A stretch of DNA of 64,000 nucleotides from Jutongia hominis. Its GTDB lineage: Bacteria > Bacillota > Clostridia > Lachnospirales > Lachnospiraceae. Numbering within the stretch: the stretch's first letter is position 1; every line of letters starts with the position of its first letter. Location: NCBI RefSeq assembly GCF_014384965.1, contig NZ_JACRSW010000032.1, forward strand, positions 181,843 through 245,842, given 5' to 3'. A program made the translations under genes and the position numbers. Positions 36,689-51,414 of the stretch are shown here, in pieces. Under the pieces are notes generated by a model that was given only the letters and a program-made list of their open reading frames with translations, did no database searches and was not told the DNA's origin.

Positions 36689-38194
36689 ATGAAATATAAT
36701 AACCCGATCGTAAAAGGATTTTATCCGGATCCAAGTGTCTGCTTTGCAAACGGAAAATATTATATGGTATGCAGCAGTTTTCAGTATTTTCCGGGCGTAC
36801 CGCTTTTTGAAAGCAACGATCTTGTGAACTGGACACAGATTGGTCATGTATTAACCAGAAAGAACCAGATCATGTTAGAAAAAGTCAACAGTAGTGGTGG
36901 TGTCTTTGCACCTACGATTCGTTTTCATAACGGTCGTTTCTATATGGTAACCACAAATGACACAACACACCAGCATTTCTATGTATATACGGACGATATT
37001 CACAAAGAATGGTCTGATCCGATCTATGTCGATCAGAACGGAATCGATCCATCTCTTTATTTTGAAGGAGATAAAACATATTTTATGAGCAATGGTTCAG
37101 ATGATACCGGCAAGCCGGGCGTGATCCAGTGTGAGATTGATATCGAAACCGGCAAAAAACTTTCACCAAGCACCTGTATCTGGCAAGGTTCCGGTGGACG
37201 CTACTTAGAAAGTCCTCATCTTTATAAGATCGGTGACTGGTATTATCTGATGGCAGCAGAGGGCGGCACAGAATATGGTCATATGGTTACTTATGCACGA
37301 AGCAGTTCTGTATGGGGACCTTTCGAAAATTACAAATCCAATCCTGTTTTGACCAACCGTAACAAAGCACCTTATATCATTCAAGGTATTGGTCATGGCG
37401 ATCTGATCCGGGATACAAACGGTGACTGGCATATTCTCTGCCTCGGTTTTCGTCAGATCCACATCTGGCATACCTTCCACAACCTTGGACGTGAGGTTTT
37501 CTTAATTCCTGTGAGCTTTGATCAAGATGGATGGTTTACTGCCGGTAACGATGGAACTGCCGAAGAAACATATGAACTCAAAGGCGATTTTGAGCAGATC
37601 ACAAAGGATACTTATACCTTTGAAAATACGAACTGGAATCTTGACTGGTGCTTTTTAAGACATCCTCATCTTGAAAATTATACTTTAGAAGATAACAAAG
37701 CAATTCTTCGTGGAACATCTGTTACGATCGATGAAGCGGATTCTCCTACTTTCCTTGCGATCCGTCAAAGAGATTTCAAAGGAAATCTTCGCTGTCATCT
37801 TTCTATTGATACTGGCGAGGCAGGAATCACAATATATATGTCAGAATTAGAACATTACGACATTGCGATCCGCAAAAATAAAGAACAGTATGAATGTGTC
37901 TTAAAATTAAATGTCGGTACGATCAAACACGAAGAAAAAGTAGTTCCTCTTGCTAATCCGGAAGCTGATCTTTGTATTCGTCTTGATAATGAAGAATATA
38001 CCTTCTCAGTCAAAGAACAAGGTAAAGAAACGATTCTCGGAAAAGGAATGACACGTTATCTTTCCAGCGAAGTATCCGGTGGATTTACCGGTGTTCTCTT
38101 TGGTATGTATGCGATCGGTGAGCAAAACACAGCAACATTTACCGATTTCAACTGCCATTACGAAGAGAATGAACCAATTACTGTTTTTGCATAA
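36689..38194 (+). CDS. GH43 family beta-xylosidase / alpha-L-arabinofuranosidase
   Basis: A 501-residue glycosidase without signal peptide, so it acts on imported oligosaccharides. Residues 1-300 form the five-bladed GH43 propeller: catalytic base Asp in GFYPDPSVCF, pKa-modulating Asp in GIDPSLYF, catalytic acid Glu in YLESPHLYKIGDWYYLMAAE. Residues 310-500 are the beta-sandwich found in the xylosidase-type subfamilies (NWNLDWCFLRHPHLENYTLE, GFTGVLFGMYAIG). The sequence SSFQYFPGVPLFESNDLVNW fits XynB-like beta-xylosidases acting on xylo- or arabino-oligosaccharides from plant fibre. It is a single gene with its own terminator; no transporter is adjacent. Confidence 0.93.
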   Translation: MKYNNPIVKGFYPDPSVCFANGKYYMVCSSFQYFPGVPLFESNDLVNWTQIGHVLTRKNQIMLEKVNSSGGVFAPTIRFHNGRFYMVTTNDTTHQHFYVYTDDIHKEWSDPIYVDQNGIDPSLYFEGDKTYFMSNGSDDTGKPGVIQCEIDIETGKKLSPSTCIWQGSGGRYLESPHLYKIGDWYYLMAAEGGTEYGHMVTYARSSSVWGPFENYKSNPVLTNRNKAPYIIQGIGHGDLIRDTNGDWHILCLGFRQIHIWHTFHNLGREVFLIPVSFDQDGWFTAGNDGTAEETYELKGDFEQITKDTYTFENTNWNLDWCFLRHPHLENYTLEDNKAILRGTSVTIDEADSPTFLAIRQRDFKGNLRCHLSIDTGEAGITIYMSELEHYDIAIRKNKEQYECVLKLNVGTIKHEEKVVPLANPEADLCIRLDNEEYTFSVKEQGKETILGKGMTRYLSSEVSGGFTGVLFGMYAIGEQNTATFTDFNCHYEENEPITVFA

Positions 38195-42157: not shown

Positions 42158-45100
42158 TTATTTCCATTTCATCTTCGTTTGAAAACCGGTCTTTTTTGTA
42201 AAAATCTTCTGATATGCTTTTTTGCTCTTCTTTGGGCAGGTCAGAACTGCCTTTTTAGCTATGCCTTTGATCGCATTTTTTCCAACCTTTTTTAATTTTG
42301 TTGTCTGAAACGTAATCTTTTGTAAAGAGGAGTCTTTAGAAAATGCTTCTTTGCCGATCTGTGTTACATTTTTACCGATCACAACTTTTTTCAGTTTTTT
42401 ACAATTGCTAAATGCTTTTGGTGCAATTTCCGTCACGGTAAATGACTGCTTACCACTCTTTGTTGACACGACAACCACAGCCGGTATCGTAACTTTCTTT
42501 ACTTTTTTGCTGATCGCCTTTTTACATTTTACCGTCTTTTTCTTTGCATTTGTCACCTCAAAAACCATACCGTTTATTTTCCAGTTTGTTCCCTTTTTGA
42601 TTGTTTCCGTAGTCGGTTTTTGTGTTGGTGAAGTGCCTGCTGTCGGCTGTGGTATCTGTGTCGGCTGCGGTGTCGGTATCATCGTTGGCTCCTGTGTCGG
42701 TGTGACTGTTGGCTGTGGTGTCTGAACCGGTTCGGTTGGGAGTTCTTCTTCCGGAAGATTTGTCTCTGTTCCTTCTTTTGGCAAAACATCAACTTCCGAT
42801 CCGGTATAGATATCACCAAGGATAGCGATCGCATCGACTACTAAAGTTCCTTCTGCTACTTCTACCGTAAATGTATGTTTTCCATTTTCTAAACCGTTCA
42901 CCTGATAGGTCGTGCACATATTACTTGCACGCTTGATCGATGCATCCGTCTGATACTCCTTGCCATCGATCGTTACATTCAGTTTTGCTTTTCCTCCGGC
43001 ATTCTCACCAAGGATTTCAAAACCTGTTCCGTCAAATGTATAACTTAATGTTGCTCCGGCTTCCGTATTTTTAGATATACTTCTCTGGTATACATACATT
43101 CCCTGGTTTGCACAGGTAATGGACCATTTATCATTATATTCTAACTTCTGATTCTTCTGCTCTGTCAGATCATATGTTTCCATATTATCAATATATTCCG
43201 AATAATATGGTGCAAAACCATTGATCTTTGTAACTGCAAGATTGTCAAAACGGGTATAGGTGCTGCTGCATCCTAATGCAACTCTTCCTGAAGTGATCGG
43301 TGTATCGTCTTCATACGAACCGACTTCCACATTATTGATATAAGCTTTGATCAGATTTCCTTCTCCACGAAGTTTGATCTGGAACCATGTTCCCGGTGTA
43401 ATCTGTGCTTCATCCACCGTGCCGCTAGCTAATGCCTGCGGCTCTTTTCCGTCTGTTGTAACGGTTTTACGATATAATGCCCATTCACCATTATCTTTGA
43501 TTTTCAAAGAATATCCGCTGCTGTCTGTAATCTTATGAGAAGAACCGGTCTGACGGATACCTACTTGTGCATACTGCCCCTGTGCCGCACGTTCAAACAA
43601 AACATCAACGGCTGCTGTATAATTCGTCCATCGGAAATCTCCAATCGTAGTCACCGGATCTCCGGCATTCCATGCACTTCCTACTCCGGTTGAAGTCTGA
43701 TCAGACTGCTGTCGTAACACATGATTGCCATTTCTGCTCTGATATACTTCAAAAGCTCCATTTAGCGTATGTGTATAACGTGCCATGGCGCCTTTTTGAC
43801 CACCTCTTGCTGTGATATAATCCTGTGTCTCTCCGGTAAAGCCACCTTTACCATCTAATACCGGTACCGTCTTTCCTTTATATTCAAAATCATCTGCATA
43901 AAGATAAGCATCTTCAGTATTTTGAACATCCCCTGTCCGGTCGGTATCAAGAACCGTACGTTTTCCTTCTACCGGCAGCTTTTGTGTATGTTCTGCACTG
44001 TCTGCAACTTCTAAAGAAGTAACCGTAACCGTAGAATATGGTTGTACCGCGAAATGATACACGCCCTGCTCATCGGCTGTCAACGACTGTGTGCATTTCA
44101 TATAATTTTCATTAAATGCACCTTCATCGGCTGCTCTTGTCTCCCAGACTTCTAACTTCTGGTCTGCCTTCAGATTCATATTTGTAGTCTTTAAGGTATA
44201 TGTCATTGGATATTCACTATCATTGACTACTACTGTAGAAAAATTATCTTTTGTTGGTGCAGCAAGTGTCACATAATTTTCGCCACCATTGCGTCCGTCC
44301 ACTGCATTGCTTGAGCTTGATTGTATTGCACTCGCTTTTGATGCCGAAGGAACACCTCTCCAGATTCCGGCTGTGTTATCGTCATTTTCCCAGCCGGTCA
44401 CCGCAAATTTACTGATATGAGCAAGTACAAGTAATCCTGCATCATAATGCATCCATCCTGACCATGGATCTCTTGCGCTGACCAATTCTTTAAATGAAAA
44501 TTGTGCTCCTTCATAAAAAGAACCGACAACAGGCTGATAGATCACATGACTCCGGCGGGATTCCACAAAACTTTTGATCACGGTATTTCCCATCTCTAAA
44601 GCACTGCCTGCTCCACCGAGCCCGGTTCCTGTCACGGTAGGATCCTGATTATTATTAGCCGGACGAAATGCTGAATTCGAAAAGGTTGCCTGTTCTTCAC
44701 TGTTCCAGACCTCTTTATCCTGCTCCTGGGCAAGCCATGTCATTCCACCGTTATTATCATCTGCTGTCTTATAGTGGTAACCAACCACGTCCACGGCATT
44801 CATGAAATCTGCATCAGCTTTTAATTTTCTTGTTACACTGTCACTGACTACATTTGCTTCATCCGATACGATCAGTTTGATCTTATGATACAGTTTTAAT
44901 GCTTCTGCATCCGGAATCGTTGATGCATCTTCTGCTGCGATCCAGCTTGCAAAACTCTTTGTATTTGCAACATCGGTTCTTAAATTCCATTTTTCATTGA
45001 CATTCGGGTTGATATAATCCACCATAAAACCGTATTTTTCATAAGCTGCCAGAATGCTCTGTTTATACCAGTAATATTTTTCTTCTGTCGTTGTCACCCA

Positions 45101-45595
45101 TGTCGGTGTATTCCAGCTTAAAATACTGACCTTTACTTTCGGATTGATCTTTTTGGCATCTGCTGCGATCTGCCAGCCCGGATTGCGCATAACATTCGCA
45201 CTTTCTCCTTTTGTACGCATTGTTGCACTTTCCGGTCCGGTTGAGTTATTACGGTCATTTCCCATCTCCAGTTTAACATGGGTAAAGATCGGATATTCTC
45301 CACCAAATAAATATTGCATCAGCTCTGCATATTTTACAGGGTTTTGTGTTTTGTAATCCAATAAAAGATCACTTGTCGAATTACCGCTTAACATGCCAAA
45401 GCCTTTGTATGTCAGACCATTGACATTATCTGCCTTGATATCATTTCCATCCAGTACAATGCTGCCTGTCTTTGTCTCCACATCTGTCCCTCGCTTTAAC
45501 GTCGTCTTTGCCATTGCGGTCATCCCACTCCCCGTAAAGAGCATCGAAAACACAAGCAGACATGTACCTACTCTTTTCCCAATTATTTTACGCAT
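42158..45595 (-). CDS. Secreted multidomain GH59-family glycosidase (galactocerebrosidase-like)
   Basis: A 1145-residue exported enzyme. Signal peptide 1-29 (cleavage after AMA). Residues 50-530 match the GH59 galactocerebrosidase fold: YKGFGMLSGNSTSDLLLDY, THVKLEMGNDRNNSTG, ILSWNTPTWV, acid/base Glu201 in NPNVNEKW, nucleophile Glu300 in EVWNSEEQATFS, and ARDPWSGWMHYDAG. A laminin-G-like domain (about 600-780) and a second beta-sandwich (about 800-920) follow, then a Pro/Thr linker of repeating TPxPT type (about 945-1000) and a C-terminal Lys-rich leucine-rich LRR_5/BspA-like domain (1010-1145), probably for surface attachment. Likely substrate: beta-galactosides of glycolipids or glycans. 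The ATG at 45595 follows AAGGAGAAGAAT. Confidence 0.85.
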   Translation of the reverse strand: MRKIIGKRVGTCLLVFSMLFTGSGMTAMAKTTLKRGTDVETKTGSIVLDGNDIKADNVNGLTYKGFGMLSGNSTSDLLLDYKTQNPVKYAELMQYLFGGEYPIFTHVKLEMGNDRNNSTGPESATMRTKGESANVMRNPGWQIAADAKKINPKVKVSILSWNTPTWVTTTEEKYYWYKQSILAAYEKYGFMVDYINPNVNEKWNLRTDVANTKSFASWIAAEDASTIPDAEALKLYHKIKLIVSDEANVVSDSVTRKLKADADFMNAVDVVGYHYKTADDNNGGMTWLAQEQDKEVWNSEEQATFSNSAFRPANNNQDPTVTGTGLGGAGSALEMGNTVIKSFVESRRSHVIYQPVVGSFYEGAQFSFKELVSARDPWSGWMHYDAGLLVLAHISKFAVTGWENDDNTAGIWRGVPSASKASAIQSSSSNAVDGRNGGENYVTLAAPTKDNFSTVVVNDSEYPMTYTLKTTNMNLKADQKLEVWETRAADEGAFNENYMKCTQSLTADEQGVYHFAVQPYSTVTVTSLEVADSAEHTQKLPVEGKRTVLDTDRTGDVQNTEDAYLYADDFEYKGKTVPVLDGKGGFTGETQDYITARGGQKGAMARYTHTLNGAFEVYQSRNGNHVLRQQSDQTSTGVGSAWNAGDPVTTIGDFRWTNYTAAVDVLFERAAQGQYAQVGIRQTGSSHKITDSSGYSLKIKDNGEWALYRKTVTTDGKEPQALASGTVDEAQITPGTWFQIKLRGEGNLIKAYINNVEVGSYEDDTPITSGRVALGCSSTYTRFDNLAVTKINGFAPYYSEYIDNMETYDLTEQKNQKLEYNDKWSITCANQGMYVYQRSISKNTEAGATLSYTFDGTGFEILGENAGGKAKLNVTIDGKEYQTDASIKRASNMCTTYQVNGLENGKHTFTVEVAEGTLVVDAIAILGDIYTGSEVDVLPKEGTETNLPEEELPTEPVQTPQPTVTPTQEPTMIPTPQPTQIPQPTAGTSPTQKPTTETIKKGTNWKINGMVFEVTNAKKKTVKCKKAISKKVKKVTIPAVVVVSTKSGKQSFTVTEIAPKAFSNCKKLKKVVIGKNVTQIGKEAFSKDSSLQKITFQTTKLKKVGKNAIKGIAKKAVLTCPKKSKKAYQKIFTKKTGFQTKMKWK

Positions 45596-45610
45596 ATTCT
45601 TCTCCTTTAT

Positions 45611-45673
45611 ATATACTGTATTTGCAAGTTTCATTGCTGTATACAGTATATGCTTTGGCAGAAAAATGCACAA
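45611..45673 (-). promoter_or_regulatory. GH59 promoter overlapped by an 11-bp inverted repeat
   Basis: TTGTGC (45668-45673), a 17-bp spacer and TATACT (45645-45650). ATATACTGTAT occurs as an exact inverted repeat (45611-45621 and 45641-45651, 19-bp spacer) running from the -10 box into the leader; one arm contains the palindrome CTGTATACAG. This is operator-like; the regulator may be the AraC protein encoded just upstream. Confidence 0.7.
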
Positions 45674-45717
45674 GATAAAATAATTGTCCTATCCCAGTAA
45701 TATGAACCCGCCTTATA

Positions 45718-46545
45718 TCACAGATCACATTCTCTCTTCCGACAGTCAGTCGGTGTCATGCCTTCATACTTTTTAAAGACCATACCAAAATAAGTCGGAT
45801 TATCATATCCGGCCAGCTTTGCGATCTCTTCAATTGATTTAGATGTCGACAATAGCAATTCCTTTGCCTGAGTAACCCGTTTTCTTGAGATATATTCCAT
45901 TGGCCGCATCTTCATTTGTGCTTTAAATACCCGGCAAAAATGCTGCTTGCTGACATTACTGATATCCGCTAACTGTTCTAAGGTGATCTCATCAGTGTAA
46001 TGTTTCTCGATATATTGAAGTGGCTTGAATAAGATCCCTTTTGTTGTCATTTTTCCATATTTCTCGTTTGTCCGAAAGGCATTACGGATATGCATAATAT
46101 ATTCATATAATAAGATTGAGCACCGATCGTCGCCATCCCATGGGTCTTTCGCAGCTGAATATAATCGTTGAAATGTCTTTTTGATTTCTTCGTTCACGAT
46201 ATTATTTGCAAATGCAAAATCAGCAAATCCCATTTCCTTCATCATTTCGTTCAGATGATTACCACGAAATACTACCCAGCAGGTCATCCATTCATCTTCC
46301 CTGACCGGATAATATTCATGGGCAATGCCCGGAGCCAGATAAAAAAGACTTCCTTCTTTTTGCAAATAACGCTTCCCATTGACAAGCAGTTGACCAGATC
46401 CGCTTTGTGTATATAGGAATTGATGGGATATCAATCCTTTCTCCCGTTTGATATGATATTCCGGATCCGCCACTCCGATCCCGGATAAATAGACCGGAAG
46501 GCTTTTTTGTTTTCCAAGGACCGGATAGAAGCAGTTTTTTTTCAT
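45718..46545 (-). CDS. AraC-family transcriptional regulator
   Basis: A 275-residue regulator with an N-terminal cupin sensor domain (SHQFLYTQSGSGQLLVNGKR, FYLAPGIAHEYYP) and a C-terminal pair of helix-turn-helices (LEQLADISNVSKQHFCRVFK and SIEEIAKLAGYDNPTYFGMV then FKKYEGMTPTDCRK). Such regulators respond to sugars and usually activate glycoside utilisation genes. The ATG at 46545 follows GAGGTGAGG. It lies 30 bp after the TIR gene and 122 bp before the GH59 gene, all on one strand, so it probably shares a transcript with the TIR gene and controls GH59. Confidence 0.93.
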   Translation of the reverse strand: MKKNCFYPVLGKQKSLPVYLSGIGVADPEYHIKREKGLISHQFLYTQSGSGQLLVNGKRYLQKEGSLFYLAPGIAHEYYPVREDEWMTCWVVFRGNHLNEMMKEMGFADFAFANNIVNEEIKKTFQRLYSAAKDPWDGDDRCSILLYEYIMHIRNAFRTNEKYGKMTTKGILFKPLQYIEKHYTDEITLEQLADISNVSKQHFCRVFKAQMKMRPMEYISRKRVTQAKELLLSTSKSIEEIAKLAGYDNPTYFGMVFKKYEGMTPTDCRKRECDL

Positions 46546-46575
46546 AAAATTCCTCACCTCATATTTGCAGCCCTA

Positions 46576-49572
46576 TTACTCTGTAAACAAATGATACTTT
46601 TCTTTCTGCTCTTTTGTAAGCTTCATACCTTTAACAAATTCATTTCCTTTCTGTAACAGTTCCTTTTCAGAATATAATGGTGTTTTATATAATGTATGAT
46701 CTCCGTCAAATGTGATCACGCTGCCATCTTCTGCCATTGCCACAAAATTCGGAATACTTGCAACAATCTCTTCCGGATGCTTTTTGTTATACAGATATGC
46801 CATGTTACTTCCGCTGGATTTACCATTTGCATCGGATTCTCCGCTTTGATACCATACAACAAAATACGGAATCTTTTTATTCGTATATACTCCATATACT
46901 CCGGTGCTGATATCGGATATATCCAGAACTTTTTTCCCTGATCGTGCATCATAAACGGCATTATAATCATTCAGAAAATAAGTTCCATCATCAAAAAAAA
47001 TCGTACACGCAAATGTTCCTGCTTTTCCCTGACTGATGATTTTTCCCTTTTCTAACGAATAGACATACCATTTGCCTGCATCCACGCTGCGATAACATAG
47101 CAGCTTTTGCTTTTCATTTGAAGTATAGATCACGGCATCTTTTAAGATCACGTCTTTTTTCCCTTTTTTCCGAATTGCTATTTTCTTATCATTTCCAAAG
47201 ATCGTATAGTCTCCAACTTGCAATCCACGGTCATAGGCATCCGGAATCGCTGTTTTCTTTTTGACTTTTCCTGTCGCCGCATCATAGGTCACTAACTCAT
47301 TTTTTTGTGCAATCGTGATCAGAGAACGATCATCATTATAGAAATAATACGAATCTTCATCATAAGAAAATACTTTTTTCATCGTTTTTGCATTAAAATG
47401 AGCATTTGCTCCATAGGCGTAATCCTGAATGCTGATATATTTGTCATTTTCCGCAGAAACGGAAAGATTATTAAAGGACTCATAATCCATATCCTTTAAT
47501 GTTGTACTGCCAATCATCTCAAGTGTATCCGCACGGAATGTCTTTACGGTATCCTGCATTCCATTTTTAAAATCCAGCAGGATTGTCTTTCCATTTGATG
47601 AAGCAGTATACCACTTTTCAGGACGTTGTGTGGTATTTGTTATAATCTCTTTTGTTGTCACGTCTTTTCTTGTCTTCTTTTTATTGCTGTATAAACGAAT
47701 ATTCTTCCCCCAAAAATCCGCACTACAGGCATAATCTTCATTTAACGCCATTGCATAGAAATTTTCTTCATTTCCGGCAGACTGGTTGATCAACAGATGT
47801 TTTTTGCTGTTATAAAAATAACTCTGTCCGTTTTTGAGTGTAACCATTAAATAATTGCCCTGTGCTTTCACAGAAGTCACATCGGAAGAATATGTATTTT
47901 TCCAAATCACTTTTCCGGTCTTGTTGCTGACTTCACAAACGTCTTTATCGACATAGAAAAAGCAGGTTTCATTGCCTGACATGGCAATCGTTCCAATGCT
48001 GCTTCGTTCGGAATCTACGAGATAATCATCTGCATTTTCATTCAGATCATAAACAACGATGTGGCTCTTTCCCATCTGTGTATCCTGCCGCACAAAACAT
48101 AGACTGTGATCATTGATAAATGAGATCTGACTGCAGCTTTCGCTTTTATCTACAAAAAGCGTGCCGCCATTCGACGTGTCAGCAAGTAAGATTCCGACAC
48201 CGTCTTTAGCATCCTGTGACAGAACCGCAATGCTGCTGTCAGGGCTGATACAATATAGTGCATATTTTTTCTGTGCGGATAAAGCTGTCTGTGCCTGTAA
48301 TCTGCCATCTGTAGCATAAGAATATAACGTTGCCGTATCATCATCATAAACAGAAATCACATCATTTTGCTCACTCAATACCATCTGACAGCCTTTCTGC
48401 CCGGTAAAAAGCTCTTTACCGCTCTTTAGATCCATGGCACAAAGTCCGTCTTTTCCGAGATAATAAAATATCTTTTCATCATTTGTAAGACAAGCCATAT
48501 GTGAAGAGGTATGTATCGCTGTTTTACTGATGTCATCCAGATTGACACACTGTACCAGCTTACGGTTATCAATCCGGTAAATATAGGCTTTTCCATTCAA
48601 CATATTATTAGCTGCTGCCTGATAACGTTCAATGACCAGATACGTTCCTTTCTTACTGATCGTCACTTTCGTATGATAGGCTTCTGTATTAAAATCATAC
48701 ACCTTGTCCGGCTGATAGCCGCTGCTGAAATCATAGACTCCCAGAGCCGATGACAAAGACCGCATTACACTTGGCACAAAAGGCCTGTCCGGTTCTTCAA
48801 GATTCTTAGGCAGTGCTTTCAGTGCCAGAAGTGCTGCGGTTGCCCTGTCTCCATTAAGATAGGCGGTATTTGAGTATTCCGACAGATAGTAAGATTGTCC
48901 TTTTAATGTCTGCTGCATCGAATGATCCAGACTGTCATATGCAGTATTTAACTGTACATTCTTATAAGATACTACACTTGCAAAGACAGCAACACCGGCA
49001 AAAACAATACCGGCAAGAATTGCATTTCTCTTTCTTTGACGTTCTTTCTGGCGCTGCTTTAGATCATCGTAATCCATATCTAACATTTGTGAGATATAGC
49101 GAAGCTTTTCTTTTGTTACATTTTTTAGGATCTGCTTTTCCGTTTCGGCACGGACATCAACCGCCAACGGTTCAATCGCTACGATCTTACCGTCACGCTC
49201 GATATGCGTCAGGATTTCAGGAAAGCTTTCCTGGGGTTCTCCTTCGACTAAAACAACAATAATATGTTCTCTGTCGCGTGTTTCTAAGAAATATTCAATC
49301 TCTTCCATACACCAGACGGATTTCTGGTATCGTTTCGTACAGATCACGATCAGATATTCCGATTCATCAATTCCGGCACGTATGATTGCCGATAAATCGC
49401 TGGCTGCACGCAGATCATCTGCGTCACGAAAGACTTTACCAAGACTTTTTTTCCCAATACTCTTTGCAATCTTTGAAGGTATCTTATATCGTTCCAGATC
49501 GTGCTGTATCTGCATACCTACTTTTTCATCAATCCCACCATGGCGGTAGCTTATAAATGCTGCGTATTTCAT
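46576..49572 (-). CDS. TIR-domain transmembrane protein with C-terminal beta-propeller-like domain
   Basis: A 998-residue protein. Residues 1-165 are a TIR domain: AAFISYRHGGIDEKVGMQIQ, KVFRDADDLRAASDL, ESEYLIVICTKRYQKSVWC with Glu91 in the WCxxE position used by TIR NADases. A basic stretch (KQRQKERQRKR, 172-182) precedes one hydrophobic helix (about 184-202), so by the positive-inside rule the TIR is cytoplasmic and the remaining 790 residues are outside. A helical segment (GDRATAALLALKALPKNLEE) leads into a region of many short strands typical of a WD40/PQQ-like propeller. No ATPase domain is present. GAGAGGATAAGAAGG precedes the ATG. It heads a group with an AraC regulator and a GH59 enzyme. 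Function unknown; sensing or defence are both possible. Confidence 0.85.
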   Translation of the reverse strand: MKYAAFISYRHGGIDEKVGMQIQHDLERYKIPSKIAKSIGKKSLGKVFRDADDLRAASDLSAIIRAGIDESEYLIVICTKRYQKSVWCMEEIEYFLETRDREHIIVVLVEGEPQESFPEILTHIERDGKIVAIEPLAVDVRAETEKQILKNVTKEKLRYISQMLDMDYDDLKQRQKERQRKRNAILAGIVFAGVAVFASVVSYKNVQLNTAYDSLDHSMQQTLKGQSYYLSEYSNTAYLNGDRATAALLALKALPKNLEEPDRPFVPSVMRSLSSALGVYDFSSGYQPDKVYDFNTEAYHTKVTISKKGTYLVIERYQAAANNMLNGKAYIYRIDNRKLVQCVNLDDISKTAIHTSSHMACLTNDEKIFYYLGKDGLCAMDLKSGKELFTGQKGCQMVLSEQNDVISVYDDDTATLYSYATDGRLQAQTALSAQKKYALYCISPDSSIAVLSQDAKDGVGILLADTSNGGTLFVDKSESCSQISFINDHSLCFVRQDTQMGKSHIVVYDLNENADDYLVDSERSSIGTIAMSGNETCFFYVDKDVCEVSNKTGKVIWKNTYSSDVTSVKAQGNYLMVTLKNGQSYFYNSKKHLLINQSAGNEENFYAMALNEDYACSADFWGKNIRLYSNKKKTRKDVTTKEIITNTTQRPEKWYTASSNGKTILLDFKNGMQDTVKTFRADTLEMIGSTTLKDMDYESFNNLSVSAENDKYISIQDYAYGANAHFNAKTMKKVFSYDEDSYYFYNDDRSLITIAQKNELVTYDAATGKVKKKTAIPDAYDRGLQVGDYTIFGNDKKIAIRKKGKKDVILKDAVIYTSNEKQKLLCYRSVDAGKWYVYSLEKGKIISQGKAGTFACTIFFDDGTYFLNDYNAVYDARSGKKVLDISDISTGVYGVYTNKKIPYFVVWYQSGESDANGKSSGSNMAYLYNKKHPEEIVASIPNFVAMAEDGSVITFDGDHTLYKTPLYSEKELLQKGNEFVKGMKLTKEQKEKYHLFTE

Positions 49573-49646
49573 CCTTCTTATCCTCTCTGTGTGCTACTGA
49601 TCCCAACACATTTTATTGAAAATGTATCTTTCATGGTTTCTCATTT

Positions 49647-51227
49647 TCATTCTTCTACTTTTTCATAGGTTTTCTTAAAAATATCTCCGCGTACAATATA
49701 AATGTCATGCTCATCATCTTCCCGCATCACAATATAATCTCCTGCCAGACCGGTATAATATTTATGTTCATCCCAGGCTGTAAACACTTTCACATTCTTT
49801 TCTAATGGCTTGGCATAGATTTTTGTCGTGCCGGATGCTACACAGCTTCGCATATAATCCATTAACCGGTATATCTCCCCATCAATATTATTTCGAATCG
49901 TAGGTGCGTATTCCATATCAAATTCTGCTACTTCATCGACATAACGATAGGTTCTTTCAAACTTCTCTTTGCGGATCGGATAAACCTCGCCTTCAATACC
50001 GATCATAAAATAAAGATCTTTAGATACGATCAGATCGACATCCCCTTCTAAAGTACGCACTAATATCGGTGTACCCATTTTCAGGAAGTCTTCTGCTCTC
50101 GTTACACCTACCGGAATTGCTTTCTTTAAATACGGCTGTAATTGTGCTTTATCTAATTGATATGTTTTTGCATAGATTACTTCATACGAATCGAAATAGT
50201 TACGGATCCTGTCACATAGGTAATCCTGCATCTGACAGTCAGGATATGTCTGCTCAAAGCTTTTCTTTGCAATAAAGCCTCCACCTTTTGTCAAATGACC
50301 TCCGCCATTTCCAATATCGGCACATAAAAATTGTGCCATTTCATTTGCTTTTGCCTCTTTGACACAGCTTCTGACCGAAAGCTTGTATCCACCCGGATTC
50401 GGATTAAATGCAACACAGGTGTTGATTTCTTCAACCTGAATCACAAAATCACTGACAATTCCAAGAATGTTAGGATCACATTGCTTGACCGGAATGACAG
50501 AAAAGCGATACTCTTCATCATAGATCCGCTTTGTCAGGGCTTCTCCCGCAATACTAAGCTCTTCTAACGAAAGATTCGTATTCATCAAATGAAATAACAG
50601 CTGATCATCTTTTTCTAATGTATCACGCATGTCCTTGTCTAAAGGATGAAAAATTTCTTCAAACTGGCTGGTATCCATATACAAACCATAATATAACGCT
50701 GTAGACAGATGGATATTCCTGCTGATATCAAATCCCACTTCCTGAAAAAGACTCCATACCACAGTAGAACAGCTGCCTAAGTTCGATTTGATACAATAAT
50801 GATCTCCCTGCATCAGACCACATTGATGATGATCTACCATAGCTATTTCCGGTGCTTTCCACTTTGTTACATTGCCGGAACCATATTGGCAGTCTGCCAT
50901 GATCAAAAGATCACAATCCGGTAATTCTGTCACATATTGTACCGGAATCTCTAATTCTTTGATCATCAATAACAAATTTGATTTTTGGATCTGATTTGCT
51001 CCACCATAGACGAAAGTAACTTCTTTTCCCTTTTCTTTAAAAAAACTCCACAACGCATAACCGGAGGCTAATGCATCCGCATCGGGGTTATCATGACATT
51101 GGATGCAGATTTTTTCATACTGGTCAAAGCGATCTAAAAAAGCCCTCTCACCGTTTTTTCTTCCATTATTCATTCCCATATTATTCTCCTCTGTAAATTC
51201 CATAACTACTCTTAAATGTTTTTTCAT
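49647..51227 (-). CDS. DHH/DHHA1 phosphoesterase with C-terminal extension
   Basis: A 526-residue protein. The DHH domain holds CHDNPDADALASGYALW, LIMADCQYGSG and AMVDHHQCG, the manganese-binding motifs of RecJ-like phosphoesterases. DHHA1 contributes ADIGNGGGHLTKGGGF. This core resembles NrnA/GdpP-type enzymes cleaving nanoRNA, pAp or cyclic dinucleotides. About 200 extra C-terminal residues contain two related segments (ending RKEKFERTY and RGDIFKKTY) not in NrnA. I use the ATG at 51227 (GGGAGG 5 bases upstream). An ATG at 51179 with GAGGAG is equally good and begins closer to the conserved core. Substrate unresolved. Confidence 0.85.
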   Translation of the reverse strand: MKKHLRVVMEFTEENNMGMNNGRKNGERAFLDRFDQYEKICIQCHDNPDADALASGYALWSFFKEKGKEVTFVYGGANQIQKSNLLLMIKELEIPVQYVTELPDCDLLIMADCQYGSGNVTKWKAPEIAMVDHHQCGLMQGDHYCIKSNLGSCSTVVWSLFQEVGFDISRNIHLSTALYYGLYMDTSQFEEIFHPLDKDMRDTLEKDDQLLFHLMNTNLSLEELSIAGEALTKRIYDEEYRFSVIPVKQCDPNILGIVSDFVIQVEEINTCVAFNPNPGGYKLSVRSCVKEAKANEMAQFLCADIGNGGGHLTKGGGFIAKKSFEQTYPDCQMQDYLCDRIRNYFDSYEVIYAKTYQLDKAQLQPYLKKAIPVGVTRAEDFLKMGTPILVRTLEGDVDLIVSKDLYFMIGIEGEVYPIRKEKFERTYRYVDEVAEFDMEYAPTIRNNIDGEIYRLMDYMRSCVASGTTKIYAKPLEKNVKVFTAWDEHKYYTGLAGDYIVMREDDEHDIYIVRGDIFKKTYEKVEE

Positions 51228-51414
51228 AGCAACCTCCCATTTAATGAAAGCAGCTCCATACTTTTTAAGGTATGAAGCTGACATTTATAATCTGTCATCA
51301 AAAAATATAATAACATATTTAGGAAAAGTTTGCCATGTAATAGAAAAGTCTCATTCTTTATAAAGATACTATTTTAAAAGCTGTTATCTTACATAAAAAA
51401 TTCAAAAAAAGTGG

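What the first reader, a model, noticed from the sequence alone, without database searches (positions are those of the whole stretch)
42158..49572. TIR-transmembrane-propeller receptor, AraC regulator and GH59 glycosidase as one candidate sensing module
Three genes lie on one strand: a TIR domain anchored by a single helix to a probable extracellular propeller, an AraC regulator 30 bp later, and a secreted GH59 enzyme whose promoter carries an operator-like palindrome. The architecture resembles an inverted Toll receptor (TIR inside, sensor outside). TIR domains make NAD-derived signals or act as adaptors (established), but a TIR receptor wired to glycan foraging would be new (inference). A defence role is the alternative.
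Basis: partly seen in the sequence, partly recalled or inferred. Interest (0 to 1): 0.75.

Follow-up and report, generated by a model that had tools for sequence, protein, structure and literature searches.

The report
TIR membrane receptor with phosphoesterase partner
A bacterial membrane protein with an immune-type TIR domain, predicted to lie inside the cell, and a propeller-shaped sensor outside is linked in related bacteria to a nucleotide-cutting enzyme and a secreted repeat protein, not to the sugar-digesting genes beside it here, which suggests a bacterial surface-signalling system that has not been described.

Summary
Grouping TIR with AraC and GH59 is not supported: no such pair beside TIR in 25 homologous loci, 20 of them with at least 2.8 kb downstream, and no TIR or DHH profile match in 12 GH59 regions. 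The conserved partner lies upstream, outside the given coordinates: a 545-aa DHH/DHHA1 phosphoesterase (49647-51284), directly before TIR in 21 of 25 loci. In all 28 held genomes of one genus the two are both present (15) or both absent (13). DHH also neighbours TIR genes of other build at 16 of 34 further places; chance about 0.04. A third partner is a secreted protein with variable front and constant BspA-type LRR tail: in 21 of 24 TIR genomes, not found in sampled genomes without this TIR type, beside the TIR gene or pair in 14 loci. Best reading: a surface receptor signalling through a TIR nucleotide product that DHH removes or reads. Linkage is shown; chemistry is inferred. I found no description in print.

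The parts
49647..51284 (-). DHH/DHHA1 phosphoesterase gene (545 aa as listed; conserved start about residue 20), conserved upstream partner of the TIR gene
   Evidence: Pfam DHH 2.4e-12; invariant HDNPDAD, DC, DHH and GGG motifs in 20 aligned sequences; model core matches PDE TM1595, GdpP catalytic domain and NrnA; directly upstream of TIR in 21 of 25 loci
46576..49572 (-). TIR-TM-propeller protein, 998 aa
49078..49572 (-). TIR domain, residues 1-165; E91 of the SxWCxEE motif in 42 of 42 aligned sequences
48958..49026 (-). single predicted transmembrane helix, residues ~183-205, basic on the TIR side
46678..48717 (-). predicted extracellular propeller region, residues ~286-965, probably a double propeller
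45718..46545 (-). AraC-family regulator; adjacent here but not a conserved member of the module
   Evidence: start read
42158..45595 (-). secreted GH59 glycosidase with BspA-type LRR_5 tail; not a conserved member of the module
   Evidence: tail scores only 51 bits against the partner-specific LRR tail profile
45611..45651 (.). inverted repeat, 11-nt arms 19 nt apart, upstream of the GH59 start

Best explanation
The unit is not TIR-AraC-GH59 but a two- or three-part surface signalling module: (1) a cytosolic DHH/DHHA1 phosphoesterase of the NrnA/GdpP type, (2) a single-pass membrane protein with the TIR domain in the cytosol and a propeller ectodomain outside, and (3), in this subfamily, a secreted or surface protein with a variable N-terminal part, a P/T-rich linker and a constant BspA-type LRR tail that probably docks on the propeller. 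Likely working (inferred): ligand capture by the secreted protein or the propeller clusters the receptor; clustered TIR domains, which keep the catalytic glutamate, make an NAD- or nucleotide-derived signal; the DHH enzyme removes it and so sets the threshold, or is the enzyme it controls. AraC-GH59 is a separate carbohydrate cassette that happens to lie downstream. Shown: linkage, co-occurrence, intact catalytic motifs. Predicted: topology and folds. Inferred: docking, signal, role of DHH.
For: DHH directly upstream of TIR, same strand, gaps -23 to 199 nt, in 21 of 25 loci. Within one genus, all 28 held genomes: DHH in 15; TIR in 14 of these, and in the fifteenth (G236) the contig ends inside the TIR gene (L088); no match to DHH, TIR or partner tail at the limits used in the other 13 (Fisher 2.7e-8). 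Family sample of 200: 13 of 15 genomes with a TIR-TM relative carry DHH against 21 of 185 others. DHH directly beside a TIR gene at 16 of 34 further places; all 16 TIR proteins have a strong hydrophobic segment after the TIR domain, and 7 of 9 scanned have propeller-type matches, two others are TIR-DUF6273. The 50 TIR places in those 33 genomes give an expectation of 0.04. Second sample chosen by TIR alone: 21 of 30 have DHH, 9 beside it by coordinates. Secreted partner tail: 25 near-full-length matches of 261 bits or more in 21 of 24 TIR genomes, next best 111 bits; of the 9 genomes that gave no row to the profile, 6 have it. In the genus, counting only genomes that gave no row: 5 of 7 with TIR-DHH, 0 of 13 without (p 0.0014). 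Elsewhere 1 of 200 and 1 of 392, each time the seed genome, the only one with a full-length TIR of this type. N-terminal parts match in 54 of 276 pairs, tails in 276 of 276. Distances correlate: DHH-TIR r=0.85 (18 loci), partner-TIR r=0.80 (15 loci).
Against: DHH also stands alone: 17 of the 34 further places have no TIR gene within one gene, and 11 of 33 DHH genomes have no TIR_2 match. Three loci (L014, L017, L021) have TIR and the secreted partner without DHH beside them; whether those genomes have DHH elsewhere was not searched. The partner tail was missing in G008, G012 and G016, is not adjacent in G001, G002 and G011, relatives of the window with 58-64% identical TIR proteins, and is not in the 64-kb window; the window's genome is not held. 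Searches scored at most 15 or 7 candidates per genome. The basic flank that supports TIR-inside is clear in the window's family but not in several of the other 16 DHH-linked TIR proteins (for example L029, L034, L040). Distance correlation is also expected from shared descent alone. No NADase, ligand or binding data were seen.
Confidence: 0.6

Rival explanations
1. Anti-phage defence: the TIR protein is a suicide NADase or signal maker triggered by phage at the envelope, DHH an immunity or signal-removing enzyme, the secreted protein a phage decoy or receptor.
For: Bacterial TIR NADases are established in defence (for example SpbK, start of abstract of PMC12847820 in the listing; Thoeris). Presence is patchy within a genus (15 of 28). 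Partner N-termini are diverse. One TIR gene is split in two frames (G016). Among 117 flanking proteins 129 PADLOC families match at 1e-5, some strongly (DpdE, DndA, SspA, MTase_II, mad3), which I read as matches to common helicase, desulfurase and kinase-type relatives but did not check gene by gene.
Against: In the window PADLOC gives only weak similarity for the TIR protein (PDC-S66 0.0015, ThsB 0.0018) and nothing for DHH, AraC or GH59. By eye many neighbours are housekeeping genes (rplS, rimP, nusA, infB). No match among 50,697 phage records. These tests are weak.
Confidence: 0.25
2. DHH is a housekeeping nanoRNase/pAp or cyclic-dinucleotide phosphodiesterase whose position next to TIR genes is shared expression or history without a common pathway.
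For: Half of the DHH places have no TIR beside them; single examples lie beside a GGDEF-EAL gene (L049) or an HD gene (L044).
Against: Adjacency to TIR genes of at least three builds, in both orders, far above chance; all-or-none presence in 28 genomes of one genus.
Confidence: 0.15
3. The first reader's module: TIR receptor wired through AraC to GH59 glycan foraging.
For: TIR and araC are 30 bp apart without a terminator; a real inverted repeat lies before GH59; in one of 25 loci (L003) a GH59 gene lies about 5.5 kb from TIR.
Against: No AraC-GH59 pair beside TIR in 25 loci, 20 with at least 2.8 kb downstream; no TIR or DHH profile match in 12 GH59 regions; an AraC relative lies near GH59 without TIR in 2 of 12.
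Confidence: 0.05

Closest known systems
Toll-like receptors (animals)
   Same: single-pass receptor plan with TIR predicted inside and a sensor outside; in this subfamily an LRR protein is linked to it
   Different: TIR is N-terminal, ectodomain is a propeller, the LRR is a separate secreted BspA-type protein, and a DHH enzyme is the genetic partner
Thoeris and other bacterial TIR defence systems
   Same: TIR domain with the catalytic glutamate; several DHH-linked relatives match Pfam ThsB_TIR
   Different: no ThsA-type match among the window genes tested; membrane receptor build; conserved partner is DHH
NrnA / GdpP / TM1595-type DHH-DHHA1 phosphodiesterases
   Different: about 175 further C-terminal residues with two similar small beta-domains; linked to TIR genes
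Bacterial effector-propeller conflict proteins (passages seen of PMC7159879 and PMC8195603)
   Same: effector domains combined with beta-propellers or repeats
   Different: neither main text holds the word DHH; no TIR-TM-propeller with a DHH or secreted LRR partner in the passages seen

Membership tests
TIR domain family | TIR profile match above the curated cut-off | tested here: met
   TIR_2 46.8 bits against 28; TIR 36.6 against 21.3
TIR NADases | catalytic glutamate in the WCxxE position | tested here: met
   E91 in 42 of 42 sequences; aligned with the glutamate of Roq1 and Cat1; that this residue is catalytic is recalled
TIR NADases | NAD+ cleavage | not testable with these tools
   needs an assay
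Toll-like receptor | extracellular LRRs, TM helix and cytosolic TIR in one chain | tested here: not met
   ectodomain is propeller-like; LRR only in a separate gene of relatives
Thoeris | ThsB TIR with a ThsA-type effector gene beside it | tested here: not met
   ThsB model only 16 bits; the genes on both sides (DHH, AraC) and GH59 match no PADLOC model; other window genes were not scanned
NrnA/GdpP-type DHH-DHHA1 phosphoesterase (for 49647-51284) | DHH and DHHA1 motifs and fold | tested here: met
   motifs invariant in 20 sequences; DHH over, DHHA1 under the Pfam cut-off; core 46-367 matches solved structures
NrnA/GdpP-type DHH-DHHA1 phosphoesterase (for 49647-51284) | hydrolysis of pAp, nanoRNA or cyclic dinucleotides | not testable with these tools
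   needs an assay
GH59 | PF02057 match | tested here: met
   7.2e-77
BspA-type LRR proteins (secreted partner in other genomes) | LRR_5 match | tested here: met
   8 of 8 scanned

The most novel reading that the evidence does not exclude
A bacterial cell-surface TIR receptor system: a secreted LRR-tailed sensor with variable front end docks on a propeller TIR receptor, the TIR makes a nucleotide signal inside, and a dedicated DHH phosphoesterase erases or reads that signal. This would be a functional counterpart of Toll signalling with the LRR on a separate protein, and a writer-eraser pair for TIR signals coded in one operon.
Probability: 0.3. Interest if true: 0.9.

Novelty: new variant of a known kind. 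Interest (0 to 1): 0.72.

Why it matters
Bacterial TIR proteins are mostly studied as cytosolic defence enzymes. A membrane TIR receptor with a conserved phosphoesterase partner and a dedicated secreted LRR protein would show outside-in TIR signalling in bacteria, give a named candidate for a TIR-signal eraser, and make the question of what receptor-type bacterial TIR proteins do directly testable.

Tried and rejected
AraC-GH59 as part of the module: rejected. The GH59 LRR_5 tail as the window's version of the secreted partner: it scores 51 bits, in the range of generic LRR matches, so rejected; no other window ORF matched the tail profile, and the window's genome is not held. A phage or plasmid origin: no phage match; plasmid matches cover at most 17% of the query, the TIR part (7 records). 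Terminator and promoter scan: counts close to those of shuffles, so it says little. PADLOC on flanking genes: 117 of 133 listed proteins scanned; the genes of L002 and L016 and three others were left out for size; 25 of 129 matching families were shown and the output does not say which protein gave which match. The search for TIR genes beside DHH used a profile from this TIR family and missed other builds; three were found by Pfam, and TIR_2 over the whole genomes shows none within one gene of the other 17 DHH places. Literature searches that brought no paper seen to describe a DHH-TIR pair; others (TIR domain-containing, Lachnospiraceae, WD40; NrnA, TIR, defense, phage) returned no paper. No known fold was seen for DHH residues 370-545, but the second look was filled by the core domain, so this is inconclusive.

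Rows dropped before counts: L011 and L016 (split or partial TIR) from the DHH-TIR distance test; L013 and L088 (partial) from the N-terminus comparison, 24 proteins kept. In one search G236 was counted TIR-positive because L088 shows the TIR start at the contig end; as returned by the calls the partner-TIR table is 12/2/1/13 (p 7e-5). Fifteen of the 21 tail-positive genomes gave rows to the tail profile; the count without them is given in the report.

Full report
What is there. The minus strand of 42158-51284 reads DHH phosphoesterase, TIR-TM-propeller, AraC, GH59, followed by genes read by eye as rpsB and tsf. The TIR protein has one strong hydrophobic segment at residue 183 (median of 42 homologues), basic before it (6.5 K+R per 20 residues) and not after (1.8), so TIR inside and propeller outside is the better topology. 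The AlphaFold model has a TIR domain with mostly good confidence and, by my count of strands, about 15-16 blades; Foldseek ranks WD-repeat propeller proteins first, with TM-scores of 0.17-0.29 on the query length, so I claim a probable double propeller and no closer kinship. The glutamate of the WCxxE motif is present in 42 of 42 sequences and aligned with that of Cat1 and the plant protein Roq1.

The given grouping fails. A profile of 42 sequences brought 25 loci from 24 genomes; 20 of the 25 have at least 2.8 kb downstream of the match. The window's GH59 catalytic part matches only L003, about 5.5 kb from TIR (in G004 a similar block stands on another contig without TIR nearby); in L004, L018 and L020 only the LRR tail matches; AraC matches only in its HTH part in L022, about 1.9 kb away. 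In three relatives with long contexts (L001, L002, L016; also L024) the TIR gene is followed by rimP-nusA (names by eye). From the GH59 side, 12 of 200 family genomes have GH59; none of the 12 fetched regions matches my TIR or DHH profiles, and an AraC relative lies in 2 of 12 (33% and 22% identity). AraC-GH59 therefore looks like an ordinary carbohydrate cassette.

A third partner. Among 312 flanking ORFs a second cluster stood out: secreted-type proteins in 15 of 25 loci (16 proteins), directly upstream of DHH-TIR (8 loci), directly upstream of TIR where DHH is missing (2), directly downstream of TIR (4), or one ORF away upstream (1, L013). Of 24 such proteins compared, 22 have a hydrophobic N-terminal stretch; one of the other two is cut by the contig end. 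N-terminal parts match in 54 of 276 pairs; the last 200 residues match in 276 of 276. Pfam sees LRR_5 in 8 of 8. Against the 24 TIR genomes the tail profile splits cleanly: 25 near-full-length matches of 261 bits or more in 21 genomes, next best 111 bits. Fifteen of those 21 genomes gave rows to the profile; of the 9 that gave none, 6 have the tail. In the genus the tail is in 13 of 15 TIR-DHH genomes and 0 of 13 others; counting only genomes that gave no row, 5 of 7 and 0 of 13 (p 0.0014). In 200 family and 392 order genomes it appears only in the seed genome, which is also the only one with a full-length TIR of this type; these searches scored at most 15 or 7 tail candidates per genome, and the samples overlap. 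G016, which lacks the full tail, has its TIR split in two frames and only a partial tail match near a contig end; this may be decay or assembly error.

How it may work. Shown: linkage, co-occurrence, motif conservation. Predicted: topology, folds. Inferred: the secreted tail docks on the propeller; clustering activates TIR; the product is a nucleotide; DHH removes or reads it. TIR enzymes make ADP-ribose derivatives, and NrnA/GdpP-type enzymes cut small nucleotides (established knowledge, recalled); a preprint (PMC13232231, title and start of abstract) reports phage proteins that degrade ADP-ribose-type immune signals, so such erasers exist, though of another family.

Defence or other sensing. 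Patchy presence and diverse sensor parts would suit defence. PADLOC on 117 flanking proteins gave 129 families, which I read as mostly superfamily matches but did not check one by one; by eye many neighbours are housekeeping genes. I cannot decide.

Print. None of the papers listed was seen to describe the DHH-TIR pair or the secreted LRR partner. I saw passages of PMC8195603, PMC7159879 and PMC7075850: the first two hold no occurrence of DHH, the third none of WD40 or propeller, in the main text. Of the rest I saw only listings and starts of abstracts. The library is open-access only.

Noticed in passing
L034:4736-6253 and L040:137-1552: TIR proteins with a strong hydrophobic segment and a C-terminal DUF6273 domain directly before a DHH gene: a second receptor-like build paired with the same phosphoesterase.
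   Followed up: partly
L049 and L044: DHH genes of the same family without a TIR neighbour, beside a GAF-GGDEF-EAL gene and an HD-domain gene, hinting at cyclic-dinucleotide turnover.
   Followed up: no
window 49647-50177 (DHH residues ~370-545): The C-terminal part holds two similar small beta-domains ending in GEVYPIRKEKFERTY and HDIYIVRGDIFKKTY, without a Pfam match.
   Followed up: no
G204:C9, G184:C31, G447:C24, G533:C6: Two or three TIR genes lie within some 11 kb of each other.
   Followed up: no
L004:13064-17437: Two tandem copies of the secreted LRR-tailed partner directly after the TIR gene.
   Followed up: no
L055:6492-10052: A DHH gene without TIR neighbour sits next to genes read by eye as tsf and rpsB, the same pair that follows GH59 in the window.
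   Followed up: no
L026:7458-10559 and L016:9989-12975: TIR-propeller genes split into two frames; decay or assembly error.
   Followed up: partly
window 36689-38194 (+): GH43 with GH43_C2 domain on the opposite strand, 8 kb from the TIR gene.
   Followed up: no
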